Shown here piece by piece: positions 26,942 to 36,424 of a stretch of 53,886 nt of DNA. Positions within the stretch are counted from its first letter, which is position 1. Each line of letters opens with the position of its first letter. The stretch is from positions 1 to 53,886 of the forward strand of contig JAFSNR010000036.1 in NCBI GenBank assembly GCA_017443345.1. The letters are read 5' to 3'. The notes beneath the pieces are model-generated. The model had not been told where the DNA came from and ran no database searches. It saw only the letters and a program-made list of their open reading frames with translations. This DNA is from Prevotella sp. GTDB lineage: Bacteria > Bacteroidota > Bacteroidia > Bacteroidales > Bacteroidaceae. The translations under genes were made by a program, and so were the position numbers.

Positions 26942-26968
26942 GAAAAAGGGCTGCCAATTGGCAGCCCT
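26942..26968 (-). terminator. Terminator of the VgrG-PAAR operon
   Basis: AGGGCTGCCAA / TTGGCAGCCCT (26947-26968) is a perfect inverted repeat; on the minus strand it is followed by TTTTTCG, a good U tract. Located 10 bp after the stop of the PAAR-like gene. Confidence 0.85.
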
Positions 26969-26977
26969 AAATGTTAT

Positions 26978-27370
26978 TCATTTTACATTCGCTTTGGCAG
27001 CGTTTCCTGGATTTTTAATTGAGATAATTCCATTCCACATACACGAACACGTGCAACTGTCGGTCAGGGCTGGCGTATTCTTCACCTTCATCTGCACACT
27101 GCCTGGCGCCCAAGCCGACGTGATGGCGGGAACACAGGGTTGCGGTGTCAATGTTCCCATAGCAGCAGATGTAGCCGAAGCCACCTGAGGATTTGTTATA
27201 GACTGACACATACCAAAAGTAGGAATATTCGTACCAGGCGCCATATCCTGAATCGTCGCCATTAACATATTACCACATTTAGGTCGCGTTGGATCAGCAA
27301 CAGCCAGAGATGTTGGTGCCGTACCAAAACTACATTGGAGCATTGCTCCTGTCGTTACAAGCTTTCCCAT
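26978..27370 (-). CDS. PAAR-like (DUF4280) spike-tip protein
   Basis: A 130-residue protein, MGKLVTTGAMLQCSFGTAP at the start and many Cys, Pro and Gly residues (CGNMLMATIQDMAPGTNIPTFGMC is the typical central stretch; CTCSCMW near the end). This is the DUF4280 family of PAAR-like proteins, which cap VgrG spikes in type VI and related injection systems and bind metal through Cys/His. It is the last gene of a six-gene operon that also encodes a VgrG-like spike, which supports the tip role. No C-terminal effector extension is present, so it may carry a separate cargo or act only as a tip. Confidence 0.88.
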   Translation of the reverse strand: MGKLVTTGAMLQCSFGTAPTSLAVADPTRPKCGNMLMATIQDMAPGTNIPTFGMCQSITNPQVASATSAAMGTLTPQPCVPAITSAWAPGSVQMKVKNTPALTDSCTCSCMWNGIISIKNPGNAAKANVK

Positions 27371-27379
27371 ATTACTTTT

Positions 27380-29131
27380 TTATTTTAGATTGTTATTATT
27401 ATCGGTATCTGCTATAAAGATTGCCAGCATGGTGAGATCATCGCTCTGCTGGGTATCACCGACGAAATCATGAACGGCTTGTGCCATCCCCTCTATCAGT
27501 TCTTTCGGAGAAAGTCGCCCAGACTGAAGGGCACGATTCGCCTCTTCGAGAATGCCTTTTTCGCTGAACATCTTCTTGTCTGCATTGAAGGCCTCATTGA
27601 GTCCATCGGTATAAAGCAGGATTGTAGTCTGCGGTTCTATGATGACTTCCTGAGTCTTATACGAGGTATTACGAACAGCCCCAACGGGGAATATACGATT
27701 TACGGGCAGCAGACTGACCTCGCGATGGATGATAACAGGTGCCTCGTGGCCGGCATTGCAGTAGCGCAACAAGCCCGAACTGAGGTCGAGAACACCGACG
27801 AACAGCGTAACGAACATGTGCTGATGGTTATTCTCGCTCAGATTATGGTTCATCTGCGAAACGATGCGGTCGGGCATACACTCATCAGAAGAGTAGGCTC
27901 GAAACAGGCTCTTAGTCACCGTCATGAACAGGGCACCTGGTACACCCTTACCACTAACATCACCGATGCAGAAGAAAAGCTGATCATCGCGCACGAAGAA
28001 GTCGTAGAGGTCGCCTCCTACTTCCCTGGCGGGATCGATACTGGCATAGATGTCGAAATCCAGACGCTCTGGGAAGTCATCGGGCAACATCGACATCTGG
28101 ATGTTACGGGCGATACGCAGTTCGCTCTCTATGCGCTCTTTCTGAGTGGTCACTTCCTCCAGCTCGTCGTAGGCCTTTTTCAGCTGACGCATCTGAAGCA
28201 GACGCCTATAGATATAGGCCGACAGGATCACGGCTATAATAAAAAGACCGCATACGATGACAATCAGCATCACCCGCTGATGGTGCAGCTGCAGGGTCGA
28301 AGTTTCATTCTCAGCACGAGCAACTTCAAGCTCCAGAGCATTCATCTCAGTGAGTTTGCGCATTTCCTCATTGTACTGTTTGTCTGTCCAGGCCTTATAC
28401 ACCCTGAATGAGTCGATAGCCTCCTGATTCCGTCCTAATCCGTCGTAGGCAGCTATCTTGAACATTAGCCTTTCTGCTTTATTCGTGATCTTCTCAGCCA
28501 GGTCCAGCAACCTCTGATAGTCGTGCGTGAACTCAGCATGATGGCACTCTGTGCTGGTGTTTACATCGCCTTTGTAATGGTTGCTTCTGATAGCGTCGTG
28601 CATCTGTCCGTAGTATTTCATAAACCTTGCAGTATCAAGGGGTTCTATTCCAGCTACAGCCTCGCACTTCATAGACAGCAGCGCTATACGGTCTTCACTA
28701 CTCCATGCAGAATACTTCAGGGCGTTGTCTAAGGCCTGAATGGCTTTTTCCCCTTGACCTCTATCGTTATAGATATCTGTCAGGAAATCATAGACTTGTA
28801 TCATCGGCTTCATCGCAGGGAGATTACGTTTCTTGTAATCGATGGATTGGAGCATCAATTCTTCTGCGCGTTCAGACAGTCCCATATCCTTAGCGATATG
28901 AGCACTGAGATAGGTCACCATGAAGAAACCGTATTTGCTGTCGTGCCTGTCAGCATAGTCTCTCATTTCGCCAATCATGTCGAGGGCTTTCCTGCTACTG
29001 ACATTATCAAGGACATAAGTAATCTGATCATACCAGTTATTATAGAGCTGCTCTTCCTCTTCATCACTCTGAGCAGCCATCTGAGCTGAAAAGCACAGAC
29101 ACGATAAAAGCAAGATCAGATACTTCTTCAT
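27380..29131 (-). CDS. TPR/transmembrane SpoIIE-type protein phosphatase
   Basis: A 583-residue protein with signal peptide (ending QMAAQ), a periplasmic helical TPR-like region (about 25-285), one transmembrane helix near 290-312 (LIVIVCGLFIIAVILSAYIY), a coiled coil (about 315-345) and a C-terminal PP2C/SpoIIE domain. The phosphatase has its metal-binding Asp residues in REVGGDLYDFF and FFCIGDVSGKGVPGALFM, then RYCNAGHEAP and LLYTDGLNEA. SpoIIE phosphatases dephosphorylate STAS-domain antagonists; a STAS gene lies 21 bp upstream. The periplasmic sensor suggests that an envelope signal is relayed to the STAS protein. Embedded between VgrG-like and PAAR-like genes, so it probably governs deployment or assembly of the spike. 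Confidence 0.9.
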   Translation of the reverse strand: MKKYLILLLSCLCFSAQMAAQSDEEEEQLYNNWYDQITYVLDNVSSRKALDMIGEMRDYADRHDSKYGFFMVTYLSAHIAKDMGLSERAEELMLQSIDYKKRNLPAMKPMIQVYDFLTDIYNDRGQGEKAIQALDNALKYSAWSSEDRIALLSMKCEAVAGIEPLDTARFMKYYGQMHDAIRSNHYKGDVNTSTECHHAEFTHDYQRLLDLAEKITNKAERLMFKIAAYDGLGRNQEAIDSFRVYKAWTDKQYNEEMRKLTEMNALELEVARAENETSTLQLHHQRVMLIVIVCGLFIIAVILSAYIYRRLLQMRQLKKAYDELEEVTTQKERIESELRIARNIQMSMLPDDFPERLDFDIYASIDPAREVGGDLYDFFVRDDQLFFCIGDVSGKGVPGALFMTVTKSLFRAYSSDECMPDRIVSQMNHNLSENNHQHMFVTLFVGVLDLSSGLLRYCNAGHEAPVIIHREVSLLPVNRIFPVGAVRNTSYKTQEVIIEPQTTILLYTDGLNEAFNADKKMFSEKGILEEANRALQSGRLSPKELIEGMAQAVHDFVGDTQQSDDLTMLAIFIADTDNNNNLK

Positions 29132-29152
29132 AAGGATTATTCTGGCTAAAGA

Positions 29153-29617
29153 TCAGTCTTCCTGCCCCATCTTCATACTATAGCAGACCACATCGTTGTT
29201 CGCTGCAAAGACATCGAGACCCTTTTTCCGTTCCTTGGTAAACTGTCCGATTTCACCCAGTTCCAGATCACATAATTTTCTTTTCCGATACAGCTCTTTA
29301 TTCCTGACGCTCTCTTCAAACTTGATGACAGAGGTCATCCCGACGTGATCAAGCACCTCATAGATCTCCTTGGCACAATTTACGAACACGATCTCCGGCT
29401 GCTGCCCCAGATCCTGAAAAGCATAGAAGATGCATCGGATGCCGCTACTTGAGATGTAGATCAGCCCAGTGACATCGAACACGACTTTTTCTATGCCTTG
29501 ATTACGATATTTGGACAGCTCTTCCGTCAAAGCGGGGGCATTGCCGACTGAGAGTTCGTCATCCAGCAAGACGTTTAGCGTCGAGCCGTCTTTCTTCACT
29601 TCGAAGTTATTTTCCAT
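29153..29617 (-). CDS. STAS-domain protein (anti-sigma factor antagonist-like)
   Basis: A 154-residue protein. Residues 1-105 form a STAS domain: LNVLLDDELSVGNAPALTEEL, then VVFDVTGLIYISSSGIRCIF with the conserved phosphorylatable Ser in SSSG. In partner switching this Ser is phosphorylated by an anti-sigma kinase and released by a SpoIIE phosphatase, encoded next. An about 50-residue C-terminal extension (rich in Lys, Glu, with KERKKGLDVFAANNDVV) is beyond the usual STAS size. No HATPase-type kinase or sigma factor is encoded in the operon, so the third partner is missing or elsewhere. Confidence 0.88.
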   Translation of the reverse strand: MENNFEVKKDGSTLNVLLDDELSVGNAPALTEELSKYRNQGIEKVVFDVTGLIYISSSGIRCIFYAFQDLGQQPEIVFVNCAKEIYEVLDHVGMTSVIKFEESVRNKELYRKRKLCDLELGEIGQFTKERKKGLDVFAANNDVVCYSMKMGQED

Positions 29618-29636
29618 CCTGTTCTATCATTTATTT

Positions 29637-30278
29637 CTAAATCATATTGATCTGATCCAGCCAGTTATTATGGGCCTCCTCGATGTCCTTCAACTTTTGG
29701 TCACGCAACTTGTCGCGATGTTCCTCTGTCTTCTGGGTGAGTTTATCAATGACTTTCTTCATACCATCGATATCTTCTTCAGGCTCACCTACCGACAGAA
29801 TCGCAATCTCTGCCTTCGCCTTGTCAATGGCAGCCTCCATCAGCGTCTTACACTCCTGATAACAAATATCAACGGCATCCTTCAGGGCATCGTAGCGATT
29901 ATCGTTCACATCCGGCATTGTCAGCTCGATGTAGCGCACGTCGTGCTCCTTCATCTCGATGTTCTCGTCAGGGCTCTGGATCTTAAAGGAGTCTATCTTC
30001 TGCTTGAACTCCGGATGCACCCGAGCGACGCCATCCATGATAGCCTTGATATCATCGTCATATTTTGGCACGATCCAGATGTGATAGTCGTCCTTTTTGG
30101 CGCACGAGGCCACCTGCTCCAGGTTCTTCGGTGAGCCTTCGATCATGACTTTGACGGGTATCAATGAGGCAGCTTCTGACTTGATACACAGATTGAGATA
30201 GCGGAAGTTCAACATTGCCACATAGCCTTTGAGCTTCTCGTACAACTGGTCATATTGATTGGATATAGCACGTTTCAT
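29637..30278 (-). CDS. Divergent ribosome-recycling-factor-like protein
   Basis: A 213-residue protein that follows the ribosome recycling factor (RRF) pattern. An N-terminal helix leads to AASLIPVKVMIEGSPKNLEQ and VAS (residues 36-58), matching the RRF stretch A-S-P-S-L-x-V-x-Y-G-T-P-x-L-x-Q-x-A-S. DDYHIWIVPKYDDDIKAIMDGV (63-84) matches the next strand and helix. IELTMPDVNDNRYDALKDAV (117-136) matches the L-P-P-L-T-E-E-R-R-x-L segment, and EPEEDIDGMKKVIDKLTQKTEE (165-186) the last helix. The Arg-rich R-N-x-R-R-D-A-N-D of true RRF is replaced by EAAIDKAKA, so ribosome contacts are probably lost. A conserved fold with new use is the likely reading; it sits between the beta-helix protein and STAS genes. 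Certainty moderate. Confidence 0.6.
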   Translation of the reverse strand: MKRAISNQYDQLYEKLKGYVAMLNFRYLNLCIKSEAASLIPVKVMIEGSPKNLEQVASCAKKDDYHIWIVPKYDDDIKAIMDGVARVHPEFKQKIDSFKIQSPDENIEMKEHDVRYIELTMPDVNDNRYDALKDAVDICYQECKTLMEAAIDKAKAEIAILSVGEPEEDIDGMKKVIDKLTQKTEEHRDKLRDQKLKDIEEAHNNWLDQINMI

Positions 30279-30293
30279 ATCTTTTTCTCTTTA

Positions 30294-30335
30294 AACTATA
30301 AACTATTCATTTTCACTCATCACTTTTCACTTCCT
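30294..30335. repeat. Heptamer tract across the end of the 656-residue gene
   Basis: Six 7-mers (AACTATA, AACTATT, CATTTTC, ACTCATC, ACTTTTC, ACTTCCT) run across the stop codon at 30313. The last residues of the beta-helix-like protein (EEVKSDE) are encoded by it. Confidence 0.7.
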
Positions 30336-32283
30336 CGATGCTCAACTTGGCACTCAGACTGCCGCCGCCACCGCCGCCACCGGCAGCAGCACCGTCGTCG
30401 ATACTTGGCGACTTGAAGGCACTCTTGGCCTCCAGGCCATCGAAGGATCCCTTCGGAGCCTTGAGTTCGCCCTTGACCTCAGTCTTGTCGTTGATAGTGG
30501 TAGCACCAAAGATTTCGGTCTTGCTGCCGCCCACAGAGGCGTTGCCGCCGTCGAGCTGTACCACAGCCTTGCCCTCGCCCTGCTGGGCCTCGAAGGTCTT
30601 GTCGGCAAAGAGTCCCATCTCTTCCGATACGGCCTGCAGCTTCTTCGACTTGATGTCTTTCGACTTCGAGCCTACGAACATCTTCTCGCTGACGAGTGTC
30701 ATCGTGCTGCCTGCGGCGAGTGCAGAGTCTGTCAGCTTCTCCTTATCCACATCCATCGACTTGGCGCTGATGGCCTTTGCGTTCAGGTTGATGCTACCTG
30801 TAGCCTTGCCCTCGGCATCGGCTGCCAGCACGTCGGTCTTCTCGGCACGAATGGCAATCTTACCGTCCTTCGTCAGAGCCTTCATCTTCGGCTGACCGTC
30901 GGCCACCTCGTAGTCGAGGCTCTCTACGGTGAAGTTCTTCGACCTGAAGATCACATCGCCTTCAGCAGTATATTCGCCCTTGGTGACGTTACCATCGTCG
31001 TCATGTTCGATATTCTTCGGATTCGTGGTAGCCACCTCGATGGTCTTGGCGGTAATCGATACCTTGCTGTCGGCAGTCAGTTCCTTCTCAGTGAAGAGAC
31101 CGTCCTTCGCCTCATAGTCGATCGCCTCAATGTTGACATTCTTCGAGGTGATGGATACGCTACCCGTCGCATTCTGGTTCTGACCTTCGTTTTCTGAACT
31201 GATGGCCATCAGGTTGATGTTCTCTGTACGAACGGAGAAGTTGCTGCCCTCCACGAGCTTACCCTCATCGTCCATCATCGACACACCCATTCTCGGCGTG
31301 CGAATCCTGATGCCTGCCTCCAGATTCGTGTGCAGGTTGCCGTCGCCGTCGGCAGTAGCTACGTTGATGCTCTCGGCCTTAATCTGAATCGAGGCGCCGG
31401 TGGTGTTCTGCTTGAAGTCGTCGCCTTCAGTGATGTTACCTTTCTCTGTCTCCAAGGCCTTCTTCTTTCTATTGGCCTCTGCCAGTTGGGAAATGGTGTT
31501 CACATACGTCATGGCGGTTCTGCAGAGCATGGGCAAAGCTGACTCCACCTGATCGTGAATATCAAGAATGTCGAGCGTGTTCACACGTCCTACCATCGCA
31601 TCGTCGGAATCCAACTCATACTCTTTATCGAGCAGCGCCTGCATCGTAGCGAATGCGCCGTCCACCGCCTGTTTCTGTGTAGCTTTCTGCTTCTCCAAAT
31701 CTGCAATCTGAGTGGTAAGGGCTGCTACAGAGTTCTCTATCTGTGTCTTACGCTTCTCACTGGATACTGCTGCCTCTATCTGCATCTCATTATCGGCATG
31801 GATACGGATACCGCCCTTGCCTGCCGATGCCGGATGCATGGAGAAGGCATCTGTGGCATCATCGCTCTCGAGCACGATGTTACAAGCCTGAGAAACAATC
31901 TCGGATGTGTCATATACAATATTCTCTACACCGTCGCTTCCCGGATCTACGGCTATCTGGCGGATGCTGGGAGCGCGGTTGACGATGTGACCGGTCTCGC
32001 CCACACCGTTGAGTTCCACCCCCTGACCCTTGATGATAACCTCACCCGTACAGCCTAACAGGTCGCCACTCTCATCCACATTACCGATAATCACTTTCGG
32101 TGCGGAGAGAATGAGACAGTTCTCGTCGCGATAGTACTTGAAGCCTTCCATCTCCTTATACAGGTCGGCCTTCATCTGCTGTATCTCTGCCTTCTGCTTG
32201 TGAATCTCTTCCAGGTCCTTCTGTACACAGTCCTGAAAATTGCCAAGCATGGTCTTCCAATCGTCAAATATATAGTCTGCCAT
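30313..32283 (-). CDS. Large beta-helix-like protein of the VgrG operon
   Basis: A 656-residue protein without signal peptide. An N-terminal coiled coil (about 1-45, IHKQKAEIQQMKADLYKEM) leads into short beta repeats (CLILSAPKVIIGNV, EVIIKGQGVELNGV), a helical insertion (about 175-285, with Cys in ALPMLCRTAM), then about ten beta-helix-like turns (about 290-560): KVSITAKTIEVA, DVIFRSKNFTVESL, KIAIRAEKTDVLA, SINLNAKAISAKS, TMTLVSEKMFVGS. It ends in a Gly run and acidic tail. The turns resemble the gp5/VgrG needle, so this may be a second spike, a scaffold or an elongated adaptor. I know no named family for the whole. The C-terminus is encoded in a heptamer tract. Confidence 0.7.
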   Translation of the reverse strand: MADYIFDDWKTMLGNFQDCVQKDLEEIHKQKAEIQQMKADLYKEMEGFKYYRDENCLILSAPKVIIGNVDESGDLLGCTGEVIIKGQGVELNGVGETGHIVNRAPSIRQIAVDPGSDGVENIVYDTSEIVSQACNIVLESDDATDAFSMHPASAGKGGIRIHADNEMQIEAAVSSEKRKTQIENSVAALTTQIADLEKQKATQKQAVDGAFATMQALLDKEYELDSDDAMVGRVNTLDILDIHDQVESALPMLCRTAMTYVNTISQLAEANRKKKALETEKGNITEGDDFKQNTTGASIQIKAESINVATADGDGNLHTNLEAGIRIRTPRMGVSMMDDEGKLVEGSNFSVRTENINLMAISSENEGQNQNATGSVSITSKNVNIEAIDYEAKDGLFTEKELTADSKVSITAKTIEVATTNPKNIEHDDDGNVTKGEYTAEGDVIFRSKNFTVESLDYEVADGQPKMKALTKDGKIAIRAEKTDVLAADAEGKATGSINLNAKAISAKSMDVDKEKLTDSALAAGSTMTLVSEKMFVGSKSKDIKSKKLQAVSEEMGLFADKTFEAQQGEGKAVVQLDGGNASVGGSKTEIFGATTINDKTEVKGELKAPKGSFDGLEAKSAFKSPSIDDGAAAGGGGGGGSLSAKLSIEEVKSDE

Positions 32284-32296
32284 AATTATTCTTTAT

Positions 32297-35200
32297 TTAA
32301 ATGTTATTCTGAATTAGATTCTCATCCACAACCGGTAACTCATCGCCAGCGTCGTTATTGTTATTACCGGGATCTTGATCGGCCGGCAACGCTTGATTGG
32401 CTCGTATAGTACTAAAGAGTTTATTCTGCACACTCTCGTTCAGTCTGTCATAAGCGCCCTGCTCCTTCTCACTGAGCAGTGCTCTCGTGATCTTACCCTG
32501 GTTGTGATGGGTTTCGAGCTTGCTGATGGTTCCGTCAGTCTTCATACTGTAGGTAGATCCTGTACCAAACAGTATCTGACCTGACTTAGCATTGGCCCAT
32601 GAGTAGTATTCCCTGAATGGCGTAGCCAGGTTTAAATTGTTCAGGTTGAGTCCCTCTACCACATCATCGAGCAGACTGGTAGCCTTCGCCATCGGTTTGG
32701 TAAACTGCAGGCTTCTCACATACAGGTTCCACATGGCTTCATTCTCCAGATCAGCGTCGGATGCCGGCTTCTGAGGTGTGGCTGCTATCTTGCTCTCCAC
32801 AATCTTGTTTCCATTAAGTTTGAACTTGATAGCCTTTGATTCCATTCCCCAGCCTTCAACAAGGTTCAAGGATATAAGGCGGATTAAGGCATCGCGATGG
32901 AATTTGTCATTTGTGATGGCACCATCTGTAAGATCTGCCCTCTCGTCAGTAATGGCGTCTTTGTCATCATAAGCGTACTTGAACATCGCAGAGTCCTTGC
33001 ACTTCTCTGCCGAGATGGCGGTTTGTAATGCCTTGATATAGTCGGCTGGCGCATCGCTCTCTCTTGGACCTATGCCGTATGCCGTCAGGTCGCCCAACTT
33101 CTGAGGCTCCGTGCGCAGCTTGGCAATGCTCTCCAGCAGCTCATTGGCCTTCTTAACCACGTCTGCCTTACATTTTTTACGTCTCTTCAGGATGTAGTTC
33201 TTCAGAGCCTCCTGCGACTTCCTGCTATATTTCGAGGCATTCGCATCGTCACCATTCTCTACCTGGAAGATGGCGAAACCGTCAACGTCATTGATGCTGT
33301 CAGCTTTACAAGTATTTGTAAAGCCCATGTCTGCTTCCTCAATTTTCTTCGTCTGTGGATCCCAGAACTTATTCTTGAGATCACCATAATGTCTGCAAAC
33401 CTCATCTGGGTTAATTGTGTTGCTGTAATCTCTAAGTTTGTTGATAGCCTTGTCCAATTCGTCTTCCTTAGAAATACATTTCTCATAACTCTTCTTATAA
33501 TTGGTTATCATCTTGTCGACGATCTTAGGTACAGCGTTGATAATATGTACCATCGCCGGCCCCATCTTGAGGGTTTGAGGGATTTCCTTATCAGTCAGTT
33601 TCTTGTCTCTCTCCTCAAGTTTCTTCGGATTCAGGTAGGCTGCATCGGGATATCCCGGCAAAGCACCTCCGGCACCGAGCTTGAGGTAACGGTTCGACTG
33701 AATGGTAAGTGCACCCTCCTGAGGCTTCCAGTACACTTCGATGAGCGATCGGATAAGCGAGAGATCGATCACGCTCTCCACCATGCTGGCCAGCTTCTTG
33801 GCAACCATTGTCTCCACATCATACATAAAGCTGAGGATATTGAACGCAGCTCCGTCACCGTATGTCGAGGCAAACTTGTTCCTGATGTTAGTACCTGAGG
33901 TAAGGGTCAGATTGTTGCCCGCCTCGATAGAAACGTTTTTGCCCCTGATACTGATATTGCCATTGGGGGCATTGATAGAGATGCCCGTAAAGGCATTGAT
34001 TGATACATTACCCCAAGGTGAGCTGATGTCGATAGCACGACGGTCGGTAGAGCCGCTGATTTTCCAGATGCCGTACTTGTCGCCCAGCTCCACACCTCCC
34101 TCGAAGGCTTTACTCATTTCATTGTCCGACCCAAAGAAGTCCGGTACATCAAGGAAACCGTTGACGAGACTCAGGCCTGGTGTGAAATTGGCCATAAAGG
34201 CGGTGGCGCCCTTACCTGTGCCCTCGTGTACCTTAATATATTCACCGTTGGGCGCCTGTATCACGGCAGATCCCGTCTTCAGTGAAACAGGAGTAGCCGT
34301 AGAGACAGCACCTACCACGAAGGGACGCTCCACGTTGTTGTTGGCATAGTTCACCAGCACTTTCTCGGCCAGATAATGCCTGCCGTGGACACCAGCCCCT
34401 GCAGGTCCTGATGAGGCAGCATAGATCAGCCAAGGGGTAGCATCCGACACATCTTGGCCTTTCAGGTCCGACGCCGCGATGGCCTCATACATCGGATTGA
34501 CAGATGTGAGCTGCCAAGGATATTTCAGACGTACACGGTTCTTCTTATTCGGATCATTCACATCTACCACCACAGCCACCTGTGGACCACTGGTACGGAT
34601 ATGTCCCGATGGAATCATTGTGGGGTAGAACAGCTTGTCTTCATTCATGCCAATGGCATTCACATAGAATACGAGTTTCTTGGAGGGCACCACAATCACA
34701 TCCGTATAATTCTCTATCTTGTAGGTATTGATGGTCTCCGACTTGGCAGTAATCCCACTGACGATATATAGTTTATCGTCTACCTTGATGAGCTGTCCGA
34801 TGTGCAGGTTTGGTGCATAGGTGTCATAATCAATAACAATGTTATTACGCTCTGCCATCATCTCACCAGTCAGAATGGCTGCGTAATCCTTAGCACCGAC
34901 AATGGGACTGGCTTCAGAGAACTGGTTTAAGGTCTTATTGCCATTACTATACTGCTCGTCAAGCATGGAGATATGTTCTTTCTTTTTCTTGAAATAAGCC
35001 TCATTGTGCTTATCGTTATATTGGCTGACCAAGGCCTCCTGTTGTGCCCACATAAGCAAGTCGTTGACAGCTGTGTCGAACATGAAGTTCATAATCGGCT
35101 TGTTGTTAGTAAGCACTTGGCCTACTTTACTTAACCAATAATAATCAGCACCGGCATCCATATCAGCCATGTTCTTGATGGTGGCAAAAACTTTGGCAGC

Positions 35201-36133
35201 ACCGTCTTTCTTCACAGTACTGTTCAGCACGTTGTTATCGTAAGGTGCTTCACACACGAACGTACCTGCGTTTTCCTGTTTAGGCTGAGCCGACGTACAG
35301 TCGTAGTAGGATATCGACTTGTAGCCGTCGATAATCTCCACGGCCTTGCTCTCGTCGGCATCGTAGCCGATGCGGAGTTTGCCGTCATAATAGTACATAA
35401 ACTCACCGTTGCGGTTAGTCGTACGCGCCAGCAGATCGTAGAAACTCTCGTTATACTGCACCAGATAAGGTATGATGTGCTCCTGCTTCCCTCTCAGCAA
35501 GTGTTTCATCTGGGTGGTGTCACACTTCACGCTCTCGTCCTTCACATAAGGCAACTTAAAGTTGGGCAACTCCTTCTTGAGGATGTCGCCGCCGAGCTTC
35601 TTAGCCGTGAATGAACGGCAGTACTGCGACAGCGTCAACAGCTTGTCGGGGCTGTAGATCTTCAGCATCACCTGCACCTTGTCGGGCTGCTTACAGGGGA
35701 TGAACTCGTGCACGTAGAAGTCCTCGCCCACAGTATAGGTCACTTCCTCGCTGTTCTCATTCCTGTTGCTAAAAGTCAGCGCCACCCGCTTATTGGCAAA
35801 CATATCGAAGAAGTCCACCTTGCTGAGGTTCACCTTCTGGGTAGTCCTGTCTATATTCGTCGGGGTGATCAGGATTTCAGCCTCTATCTCGTGAGGGCTG
35901 TACATCTTCTGCTGAAGCTGGAAGGTGCCAAGAGAGAGCGAGAAGTTCACATCCATAGTTCCTCCCTTTTCCCATTTTCCATCTTTGGAAGAAAGGTCCC
36001 TCTGTAGCAACGGCATCCGCTTGCTCAATTCACCATTAATCACGTCGTCTCCGACAGATATAGAGACGTCGGTCTTCTGCAACGGCATCCTGTTAATGAT
36101 GACCCCATAGATTGTCAATGTCAATTTCGCCAT
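32297..36133 (-). CDS. VgrG-like spike with a long C-terminal extension
   Basis: A 1278-residue protein. N-terminal gp27-like part (1 to about 490) contains the VgrG phrase YNESFYDLLARTTNRNGEFMYYYDG (about 224-250). The gp5-type OB fold follows near 510 (GPQVAVVVDVNDP, KNRVRLKYPWQ), then TPWLIYAASSGPAGAGVHG and VLVNYANNNVERPFVVGA. A beta-helix needle occupies about 700-760 (VSINAFTGISINAP, NISIRGKNVSIEAG, NLTLTSG). The last about 520 residues are mostly helical, with long charged segments, and are far beyond a typical VgrG (about 600-700 residues). They could be a delivered toxin, a cargo-binding platform or a structural arm. First gene of the operon; promoter box at 36161. No signal peptide, as expected for a spike. 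Confidence 0.88.
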   Translation of the reverse strand: MAKLTLTIYGVIINRMPLQKTDVSISVGDDVINGELSKRMPLLQRDLSSKDGKWEKGGTMDVNFSLSLGTFQLQQKMYSPHEIEAEILITPTNIDRTTQKVNLSKVDFFDMFANKRVALTFSNRNENSEEVTYTVGEDFYVHEFIPCKQPDKVQVMLKIYSPDKLLTLSQYCRSFTAKKLGGDILKKELPNFKLPYVKDESVKCDTTQMKHLLRGKQEHIIPYLVQYNESFYDLLARTTNRNGEFMYYYDGKLRIGYDADESKAVEIIDGYKSISYYDCTSAQPKQENAGTFVCEAPYDNNVLNSTVKKDGAAKVFATIKNMADMDAGADYYWLSKVGQVLTNNKPIMNFMFDTAVNDLLMWAQQEALVSQYNDKHNEAYFKKKKEHISMLDEQYSNGNKTLNQFSEASPIVGAKDYAAILTGEMMAERNNIVIDYDTYAPNLHIGQLIKVDDKLYIVSGITAKSETINTYKIENYTDVIVVPSKKLVFYVNAIGMNEDKLFYPTMIPSGHIRTSGPQVAVVVDVNDPNKKNRVRLKYPWQLTSVNPMYEAIAASDLKGQDVSDATPWLIYAASSGPAGAGVHGRHYLAEKVLVNYANNNVERPFVVGAVSTATPVSLKTGSAVIQAPNGEYIKVHEGTGKGATAFMANFTPGLSLVNGFLDVPDFFGSDNEMSKAFEGGVELGDKYGIWKISGSTDRRAIDISSPWGNVSINAFTGISINAPNGNISIRGKNVSIEAGNNLTLTSGTNIRNKFASTYGDGAAFNILSFMYDVETMVAKKLASMVESVIDLSLIRSLIEVYWKPQEGALTIQSNRYLKLGAGGALPGYPDAAYLNPKKLEERDKKLTDKEIPQTLKMGPAMVHIINAVPKIVDKMITNYKKSYEKCISKEDELDKAINKLRDYSNTINPDEVCRHYGDLKNKFWDPQTKKIEEADMGFTNTCKADSINDVDGFAIFQVENGDDANASKYSRKSQEALKNYILKRRKKCKADVVKKANELLESIAKLRTEPQKLGDLTAYGIGPRESDAPADYIKALQTAISAEKCKDSAMFKYAYDDKDAITDERADLTDGAITNDKFHRDALIRLISLNLVEGWGMESKAIKFKLNGNKIVESKIAATPQKPASDADLENEAMWNLYVRSLQFTKPMAKATSLLDDVVEGLNLNNLNLATPFREYYSWANAKSGQILFGTGSTYSMKTDGTISKLETHHNQGKITRALLSEKEQGAYDRLNESVQNKLFSTIRANQALPADQDPGNNNNDAGDELPVVDENLIQNNI

Positions 36134-36394: not shown

Positions 36395-36424
36395 TTCAGG
36401 GCCTGCAGCGATGCAAGCCCTGAA
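36395..36424. terminator. GC-rich intergenic hairpin
   Basis: TTCAGGGC / GCCCTGAA with an inner TGCA/TGCA stem, in the gene-free stretch 36134-36741. It is followed by TGCTTTTA in the plus direction. It could end transcripts from either side; no adjacent gene end makes this certain. Confidence 0.45.

What the first reader, a model, noticed from the sequence alone, without database searches (positions are those of the whole stretch)
26978..36133. VgrG-PAAR operon carrying a SpoIIE/STAS switch and an RRF-like protein
Six tightly packed co-directional genes (gaps 9-34 bp) combine an injection spike (VgrG-like, PAAR-like), a second beta-helix-like protein, an RRF-like protein and two of the three parts of a partner-switching circuit. 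The sheath, tube and baseplate genes are not in the window. A spike and its signalling phosphatase in one operon suggests that assembly or firing is governed by phosphorylation of the STAS protein, or that these proteins form a self-standing envelope device.
Basis: partly seen in the sequence, partly recalled or inferred. Interest (0 to 1): 0.88.

Follow-up and report, generated by a model that had tools for sequence, protein, structure and literature searches.

The report
T6SS spike cassette with phospho-switch
A gut bacterium related to rumen Prevotella carries spare tips for its molecular harpoon, several of them packaged with a sensor and an on/off switch protein, and in some the switch protein bears a short end-tag that elsewhere sits on a spike partner protein, which suggests that the cell chooses which tip to load by switching that protein.

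Summary
In detail: six tightly packed minus-strand genes encode VgrG, a beta-helix-like protein (BHX), an RRF-like protein, STAS, a SpoIIE phosphatase and a DUF4280 PAAR-like tip. It is not a self-standing device: the same genome has a Bacteroidota-type T6SS locus and ten VgrG-BHX-RRF cassettes. The RRF-like protein belongs to the spike, not the switch. STAS and SpoIIE, sometimes with an RsbW-like kinase, accompany orphan cassettes in Prevotella relatives in many gene orders, with different sensors and from several SpoIIE lineages; STAS is beside 37 of 66 orphan and 0 of 20 main-locus cassettes. The six-gene order recurs in three other genomes, once at another site. Unexpectedly, long STAS proteins, the window's included, end in a ~16-residue peptide that otherwise ends RRF-like proteins: a model trained on RRF tails ranks 17 of 17 long STAS above 3,691 other frames, and RRF lacks the tail in 16 of 16 such cassettes, 9 of 9 further ones. 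I infer that the tail docks the spike and was handed to STAS, so that phosphorylation gates spike loading. Receptor, kinase and biochemistry are untested. No listed paper reports this.

The parts
32297..36133 (-). VgrG-like spike, 1278 aa; about the last 480 residues diverge more than the middle among the four window-type copies
   Evidence: Phage_base_V over cut-off, Phage_GPD and vgr_GE under cut-off; VgrG chains in PDB at E 0.0021 and 0.0088; identity profile
30313..32283 (-). BHX: 656-aa coiled-coil plus beta-repeat protein of the VgrG cassettes compared here (beta-helix-like by sequence pattern only)
   Evidence: family alignment A1, repeat count; no Pfam match at a cut-off, PDB matches only to coiled coils and the like
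29637..30278 (-). RRF-like protein, 213 aa, homologous to ribosome recycling factor; lacks the C-terminal tail that most relatives have
29153..29617 (-). STAS-domain switch protein, 154 aa, with the serine motif SSSG
   Evidence: Pfam STAS 54.2 bits; motif and alignment
29156..29209 (-). C-terminal tail of STAS (FAANNDVVCYSMKMGQED), like the tails of RRF-like proteins
27380..29131 (-). SpoIIE (PP2C) phosphatase, 583 aa; signal-peptide-like start and one hydrophobic segment by eye, weak TPR-like region, PP2C domain with GGDLYD, GDVSGKG and DDLT motifs
27419..27988 (-). SpoIIE/PP2C catalytic domain
   Evidence: PF07228, 160.4 bits
26978..27370 (-). DUF4280 PAAR-like spike tip, 130 aa
   Evidence: Pfam 99.3 bits; NCBIfam IglG model 22 bits, far below its cut-off of 200
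26947..26968 (.). G+C-rich hairpin just after the last gene, possible end of the unit (or terminator of the convergent aroC)
   Evidence: reported for the + strand; palindromic
36395..36424 (-). terminator-like hairpin between pyrD and vgrG

Best explanation
The operon is an orphan spike cassette of a Bacteroidota (type iii) T6SS with its own partner-switching circuit. VgrG, BHX and the PAAR-like protein form a spike that is fired by the main T6SS encoded elsewhere in the genome. The RRF-like protein is a spike adaptor; in most cassettes its C-terminal peptide docks the spike to a component common to all cassettes. In window-type cassettes that peptide sits on the STAS protein instead. STAS binds the spike or adaptor in one phosphorylation state only; a kinase (in trans here, in cis in some relatives) phosphorylates it, and the membrane SpoIIE phosphatase resets it when its sensor is triggered. 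So the sensor decides whether this spike, among about ten, is loaded. Shown by sequence: the gene cluster, the T6SS sheath and tube genes, the recurrent pairing, the shared tail and its absence from RRF when STAS has it, phosphatase motifs and serine motif. Inferred: one transcript, docking function, STAS-spike binding, direction of the switch, kinase identity, signal.
For: Ten RRF-like genes in the own genome, each in a VgrG-BHX-RRF cassette (in two, C77 and C114, the VgrG frame is split). 7 of 13 STAS and 7 of 21 SpoIIE genes lie within 3.5 kb of a cassette, 0.43 and 0.69 expected. Of 86 cassettes (80 database loci, own genome and two family genomes; 4 of 90 RRF genes dropped for want of a usable BHX: L191, L193, one of L176, one of C77; L128, L146, L151, L174 have no RRF gene) 37 have STAS within 2 kb: 0 of 20 with core T6SS genes near, 37 of 66 others. 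Gene orders vary. Sensors vary: Cache/HAMP, receiver, none, and the window's TPR-like one; the 31 cassette SpoIIE domains used are not one clade, at least 4 changes on well-supported branches. Tail model from 38 RRF tails: 17 of 17 long STAS above the best of 3,691 other frames, 0 of 27 short STAS; RRF tail in 0 of 16 long-STAS cassettes, 16 of 19 short-STAS and 39 of 49 no-STAS cassettes; in further cassettes 0 of 9 RRF and 10 of 10 STAS score above it. The tail is the best-kept part of these STAS (65% mean identity between five clade representatives, domain 46%, linker 22%). All 14 of 388 genus genomes with a tailed STAS are among the 31 with a T6SS-type RRF-like gene.
Against: No interaction, phosphorylation or secretion data. 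The window has no kinase; the own genome has six strong RsbW-like domains but none is shown to act on this STAS. Tree-corrected support for the tail handover is small: 5 independent contrasts on starred branches, of which on average 3.6 (strict motif) or 2.9 (looser motif) go the expected way, none the other way; too few for significance. Two of 24 tailed STAS (both in G335, a fragmented MAG) have no cassette on their stretch and one is at a contig edge. L137 and L193 carry tailed STAS with KGEG in place of the serine motif and no phosphatase in the 22-kb locus, so the tail does not always go with phosphorylation. RRF keeps the tail in 16 of 19 short-STAS and 39 of 49 no-STAS cassettes, so most cassettes are not gated this way; 10 of 49 no-STAS RRFs fail the tail model without any STAS to explain it (one, L148, is cut by its contig end upstream). 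A SpoIIE-like gene, without STAS, lies within 2.5 kb of 3 of the 20 main-locus cassettes. A loose regular expression also called a tail in one of the 9 further RRFs, L214.
Confidence: 0.5

Rival explanations
1. Transcriptional partner switching: STAS controls an RsbW-like kinase or other regulator, which in turn controls expression of this cassette or of the T6SS; the switch genes sit in the cassette for co-regulation only.
For: Canonical role of such modules (review passages). An AraC-type HTH protein lies between TssB and TssC in the own main locus and beside STAS in L118, L119 and L156. Short STAS proteins have no tail (0 of 27), so this may be right for that class.
Against: No sigma-factor gene recognised by eye among the neighbours in the ORF list (not searched by profile); the window's STAS carries the RRF-type tail, which a purely transcriptional switch would not need.
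Confidence: 0.27
2. The tail is a stability or export signal: it marks RRF, or STAS in window-type cassettes, for an ATPase or for secretion with the spike, so the switch protein is turned over or shot out.
For: Short conserved C-terminal peptides often are such signals (recalled); the tail is at the extreme C-terminus.
Against: Does not by itself explain why only one of the two proteins of a cassette bears it, nor the pairing with a phosphatase.
Confidence: 0.12
3. Hitch-hiking: STAS and SpoIIE are chance neighbours in recombination-prone cassettes.
For: Gene order is shuffled, VgrG is mosaic, and 14 of 21 SpoIIE genes of the genome are not within 3.5 kb of a cassette.
Against: 0.43 expected against 7 STAS in the own genome; recurrence in many orders and lineages; six-gene order kept at another site in L117; shared tail.
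Confidence: 0.04
4. Self-standing envelope injection device.
Against: Sheath TssC (334.6 bits), TssD and baseplate-like genes elsewhere in the genome, with a cassette of the same gene families inside that locus.
Confidence: 0.02

Closest known systems
Bacteroidota type iii T6SS and its VgrG/PAAR spike (PMC10781749, PMC4714493; passages seen)
   Same: TssC and TssD families, VgrG, DUF4280 tip; PMC10781749 names Prevotella among genera in which a fraction of species has it
   Different: The word SpoIIE occurs in neither text; STAS and phosphatase were looked for only in PMC4714493 and do not occur there. The BHX and RRF-like proteins are not mentioned in the passages seen
[quoted passage not shown] passages seen)
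   Same: Partner-switch proteins with a secretion system; [quoted passage not shown]
   Different: Type III, not type VI; the passages seen mention no switch per spike and no tail shared with a secretion-system protein
Pseudomonas HptB-PA3346-PA3347 pathway (PMC2904497; passages seen)
   Same: response regulator with PP2C output and an anti-anti-sigma-like protein, like the receiver-PP2C of L132
   Different: Acts on rsmY; the abstract calls control of T6SS HptB-independent
Orphan VgrG cassettes with adaptors or chaperones in Proteobacteria (recalled)
   Same: Several spikes per cell, each with dedicated partner genes
   Different: Those adaptors are other families (DUF4123, DUF1795, DUF2169; recalled); here an RRF homologue and a phospho-switch

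Membership tests
Bacteroidota type iii T6SS (genome level) | Sheath and tube (TssC, TssD) | tested here: met
   PF17541 334.6 bits and PF17642 90.3 bits on C72, both over cut-off
Bacteroidota type iii T6SS (genome level) | ClpV, TssE, TssK | tested here: inconclusive
   Clp-family ATPase (ClpV model TIGR03345 494 bits and ClpB model 599 bits, both below their cut-offs); GPW_gp25 34.3 bits over Pfam's cut-off but TssE model 30.5 bits below its own; TssK model 29.1 bits below cut-off
Bacteroidota type iii T6SS (genome level) | TssB, TssF, membrane complex | tested here: inconclusive
   Labelled by position and recall only; no T6SS family match for the ORFs tried
VgrG | gp27/gp5-like hub with OB domain | tested here: met
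   Phage_base_V over cut-off, Phage_GPD below it; VgrG models of NCBIfam below their cut-offs
PAAR-like DUF4280 | DUF4280 domain | tested here: met
   99.3 bits
Ribosome recycling factor fold | Sequence homology over both parts of RRF | tested here: met
   1eh1 E 7.9e-12 in two stretches, profile positions 8-86 and 115-198; window protein alone below Pfam's cut-off
Ribosome recycling factor (function) | Ribosome recycling | not testable with these tools
   Ten copies beside VgrG make this unlikely
Partner-switching module | SpoIIE phosphatase with metal-binding Asp motifs | tested here: met
   GGDLYD, GDVSGKG, DDLT in the window protein
Partner-switching module | STAS with phosphorylatable Ser | tested here: met
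   SSSG in the window; KGEG in L137 and L193; phosphorylation itself not testable
Partner-switching module | RsbW-like kinase in the unit | tested here: not met
   None labelled in the window operon; present in the C77 cassette and in five other long-STAS loci (L153, L155, L158, L159, L160)

The most novel reading that the evidence does not exclude
A docking peptide has moved from a spike adaptor (an RRF homologue) to a phospho-switch protein, turning constitutive loading of a T6SS spike into signal-gated loading; with up to four such cassettes in one genome (G547) beside others with short STAS or none, the bacterium chooses its spike post-translationally.
Probability: 0.42. Interest if true: 0.92.

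Novelty: new variant of a known kind. Interest (0 to 1): 0.8.

Why it matters
How a cell with many VgrGs decides which one to load is, to my knowledge, an open question. Here a spike can come with its own sensor phosphatase and STAS protein, and the shared tail names the part to test. If right, it would be a partner switch wired into a T6SS spike, which none of the papers listed in my searches reports, and a new use of the RRF fold. One carrier, Prevotella sp. ne3005 (L117, L142, L192), is by recall a cultured strain, so it could be tested.

Tried and rejected
Self-standing device: rejected after the main T6SS was found. RRF as part of the switch: rejected, it occurs in cassettes without STAS. 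Chance neighbourhood: disfavoured. Tail as a general feature of T6SS proteins: rejected; the VgrG, Hcp, TssC, TssK, PP2C and PAAR ends shown (up to 14 per family) differ, BHX often ends in a weakly similar SLSAKLKTED; a loose expression matched 215 of 2,526 other frames, among them 11 of 16 TssB and 10 of 17 TssF, which is why the profile score was used. The first profile was trained partly on two RRF ends of long-STAS cassettes (window, L116) by mistake; one search was trained without them. Tail as ligand of the cassette's own STAS: disfavoured, tails exist in cassettes without STAS. Order-wide search: tailed STAS and T6SS-type RRF-like genes were found in the own genome only among 393 (one further STAS hit, G636, stops before the tail), so the trait looks concentrated in Prevotella relatives, though one search also brought cassettes from Bacteroidales MAGs. 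Promoter scan with a Bacteroidetes-type pattern (recalled) gave no site on the minus strand just upstream of 36133.

Structure prediction: the RRF job stayed queued and failed; the BHX job was never accepted. No fold search was therefore run.

Literature: searches found no paper; one unrelated paper each; one search listed 10 of 11, 10 of 133 and 7 of 7. Among the papers listed none is titled or abstracted as joining T6SS with a SpoIIE/STAS switch in Bacteroidetes or RRF with VgrG; papers not listed were not seen.
Full report
What is in the window. Six ORFs on the minus strand, 36133 down to 26978, all with ATG starts and gaps of 13, 34, 19, 21 and 9 bp: VgrG (1278 aa), BHX (656 aa), RRF-like (213 aa), STAS (154 aa), SpoIIE with a weakly TPR-like N-terminal part (583 aa), DUF4280 PAAR-like (130 aa). 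Hairpins lie after the last gene and between pyrD and vgrG; gene names of the neighbours are by eye. The RRF label is weak for the window protein alone (27.1 bits, cut-off 29.7), but the family profile finds solved ribosome recycling factors at E 7.9e-12 in two stretches, and frames of about 190 aa that are probably the ordinary RRFs of genus genomes at E 1e-6 to 1e-9.

The machine it belongs to. The genome (4.16 Mb, 204 contigs, 92% complete) has a locus on contig C72 with TssC (334.6 bits), TssD, a Clp-family ATPase, a GPW_gp25/TssE-like and a weakly TssK-like gene, and inside it Hcp-adapter-VgrG-BHX-RRF-PAAR. The names TssB, TssF, Hcp, adapter and the membrane-complex names are mine, by position and recall. 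The RRF-like protein has ten copies in this genome, each in a VgrG-BHX-RRF cassette by the labels (VgrG frame split in two of them); the window is one. The finding's 'missing' parts are thus elsewhere.

The switch is a recurrent companion. In the own genome 7 of 13 STAS and 7 of 21 SpoIIE genes lie within 3.5 kb of a cassette (expected 0.43 and 0.69); within 2 kb it is 6 and 6; within 500 bp 6 of 13 STAS and, counted at one end of the phosphatase domain, 0 of 21 SpoIIE, since STAS or the sensor part lies between (two rows of C123 counted as one gene). Contig C77 alone holds four cassettes with switch genes, one with a kinase as well: VgrG-BHX-RRF-STAS-kinase-PP2C. The exact order VgrG-BHX-RRF-STAS-PP2C-PAAR is found in L116, L117 and L157, and, with VgrG beyond the contig's start, in L215. 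L116 and L157 share the chromosomal site aroC-cassette-pyrD with the window, so they are not independent of it; in L117 none of six flanking genes was found in its 22 kb, yet it has the same six genes in order.

Many arrangements. Besides that order there are STAS-VgrG-BHX-RRF-PP2C, PP2C-STAS-VgrG-BHX-RRF, VgrG-BHX-RRF-STAS-PP2C, the form with a kinase, forms with a fused PP2C-kinase, and others. Of 86 cassettes with a usable BHX-RRF pair (4 of 90 RRF genes dropped; four loci have no RRF gene), 37 have STAS within 2 kb (16 long, 21 short): none of the 20 with core T6SS genes nearby, 37 of the 66 others (Fisher p 3e-6, not corrected for kinship). A SpoIIE-like gene does lie within 2.5 kb of 3 of the 20. 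STAS and a dedicated Hcp-adapter pair tend to exclude each other: of the 66, 31 have STAS without Hcp, 22 Hcp without STAS, 6 both, 7 neither. On the BHX tree the STAS-or-PP2C label needs 11 changes and the long-STAS label 6. Sensors of the phosphatases scanned differ: Cache-HAMP, receiver, none, TPR-like in the window, and the 31 cassette phosphatase domains used mix with 14 from elsewhere (7 changes; at least 4 on starred branches).

The tail. Most RRF-like proteins end in a peptide such as AYSMKLGQEDIN or SMRLDADE. STAS proteins come as short (frames of 100-134 aa) and long (135-169 aa). All 17 long ones of this set end in a peptide such as FAANNDVVCYSMKMGQED (window). A position matrix trained only on 38 RRF tails from cassettes without a long STAS puts 17 of 17 long STAS above the highest of 3,691 other frames (9.0), and 0 of 27 short STAS; RRF proteins pass in 39 of 49 cassettes without STAS and 16 of 19 with short STAS (leave-one-out), and in 0 of 16 with long STAS. 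With a regular expression: RRF tail in 41 of 49, 16 of 19 and 0 of 16; Fisher p 3e-7 for long against short, not corrected for kinship. Corrected for kinship there are 5 contrasts, none against, too few for significance. Nine further long-STAS cassettes whose RRF end was not among the earlier ones, from unnamed genus genomes, gave 0 of 9 RRF above the threshold, and all 10 further STAS ends were above it. Two of the nine (L213, L216) have STAS ends identical to earlier ones, the lowest STAS score (L215, 9.1) is only just above 9.0, and the loose expression called one RRF tail (L214). Among the long STAS the tail is better kept (65% between five clade representatives) than the STAS domain (46%) or the linker (22%).

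Genus-wide test. In 388 genus genomes, 31 have a T6SS-type RRF-like gene (best E below 1e-20, counted from the table) and 14 have a full-length tailed STAS (profile matched to position 152 or beyond); all 14 are among the 31 (p 2e-17). Many of these genomes are probably those behind the 80 loci, so this is not independent. Of 24 tailed STAS, 20 have an RRF match within about 7 kb on the same contig and one more was found by reading the stretch (L202); one is at a contig edge (L199); two, both in G335, have none (L200, L201). One search scored at most 7 candidates a genome, so RRF copies can be missed there. Two regions with STAS relatives that lack the tail were read (L224, L226) and hold no cassette.

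How it most likely works. The tail is found on RRF-like proteins also in main T6SS loci, so its receptor should be common to all cassettes. In window-type cassettes RRF has lost it and STAS has it. The simplest reading is that the tail docks a spike complex to the machine, and that handing it to a protein whose binding is controlled by phosphorylation makes the docking conditional. Phosphatase motifs and the serine motif are intact in the window. The exceptions L137 and L193, with KGEG for SSSG and no phosphatase in the locus, would then be ungated. The kinase for the window STAS is not in the operon; the genome has six strong RsbW-like domains, one in the C77 cassette whose STAS is 53% identical to the window's. 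Whether phosphorylation permits or prevents loading cannot be told. Short-STAS cassettes mostly keep the RRF tail, so there the switch must act otherwise, perhaps on transcription.

Known or new. Type iii T6SS, VgrG/PAAR spikes and partner switches are all known. Bordetella's BtrU/V/W is the closest precedent of a partner switch in secretion (review passages). In Pseudomonas a response-regulator-PP2C/anti-anti-sigma pathway belongs to HptB signalling, and T6SS control was reported as HptB-independent (passages). Text searches for T6SS with SpoIIE, STAS, partner switching, RsbU/V/W and RRF listed no report of the pairing (one search showed only 10 of 133); most subscription papers and bioRxiv preprints are not in that library. 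I file it as a new variant of a known kind.

Noticed in passing
G000 contig C72 (L013:7853-8404) and L118, L119, L156: A coiled-coil protein with an AraC-type HTH lies between TssB and TssC in the main locus and beside STAS in three cassettes: possible output of the short-STAS switches.
   Followed up: partly
L124, L139, L140, L141, L143, L147, L149, L180: A Cache-sensor SpoIIE-like protein with altered PP2C motifs (SADFYD, GDVPGSN in the two printed, L139 and L180) lies downstream of an Hcp-VgrG cassette on the opposite strand, in six of the eight with ClpV further on; the seven in the tree are one clade.
   Followed up: partly
window 32297-36133 against L116, L117, L157: VgrG is mosaic: the first ~250 residues match L116 at 85-98% but L117 and L157 at 22-61%, the middle is more alike, the last ~480 diverge.
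   Followed up: no
L137, L193: Tailed STAS without the serine motif (KGEG) after an Hcp-adapter pair and without a phosphatase in the locus: perhaps natural ungated forms.
   Followed up: partly
G000:C72:23577-24446: After another orphan cassette lies a 289-aa membrane protein alike to the sensor part of cassette SpoIIE proteins, without a PP2C match.
   Followed up: no
G335:C112 (L200) and G335:C46 (L201): Tailed STAS next to a phosphatase or kinase but without any labelled spike gene on the stretch.
   Followed up: partly
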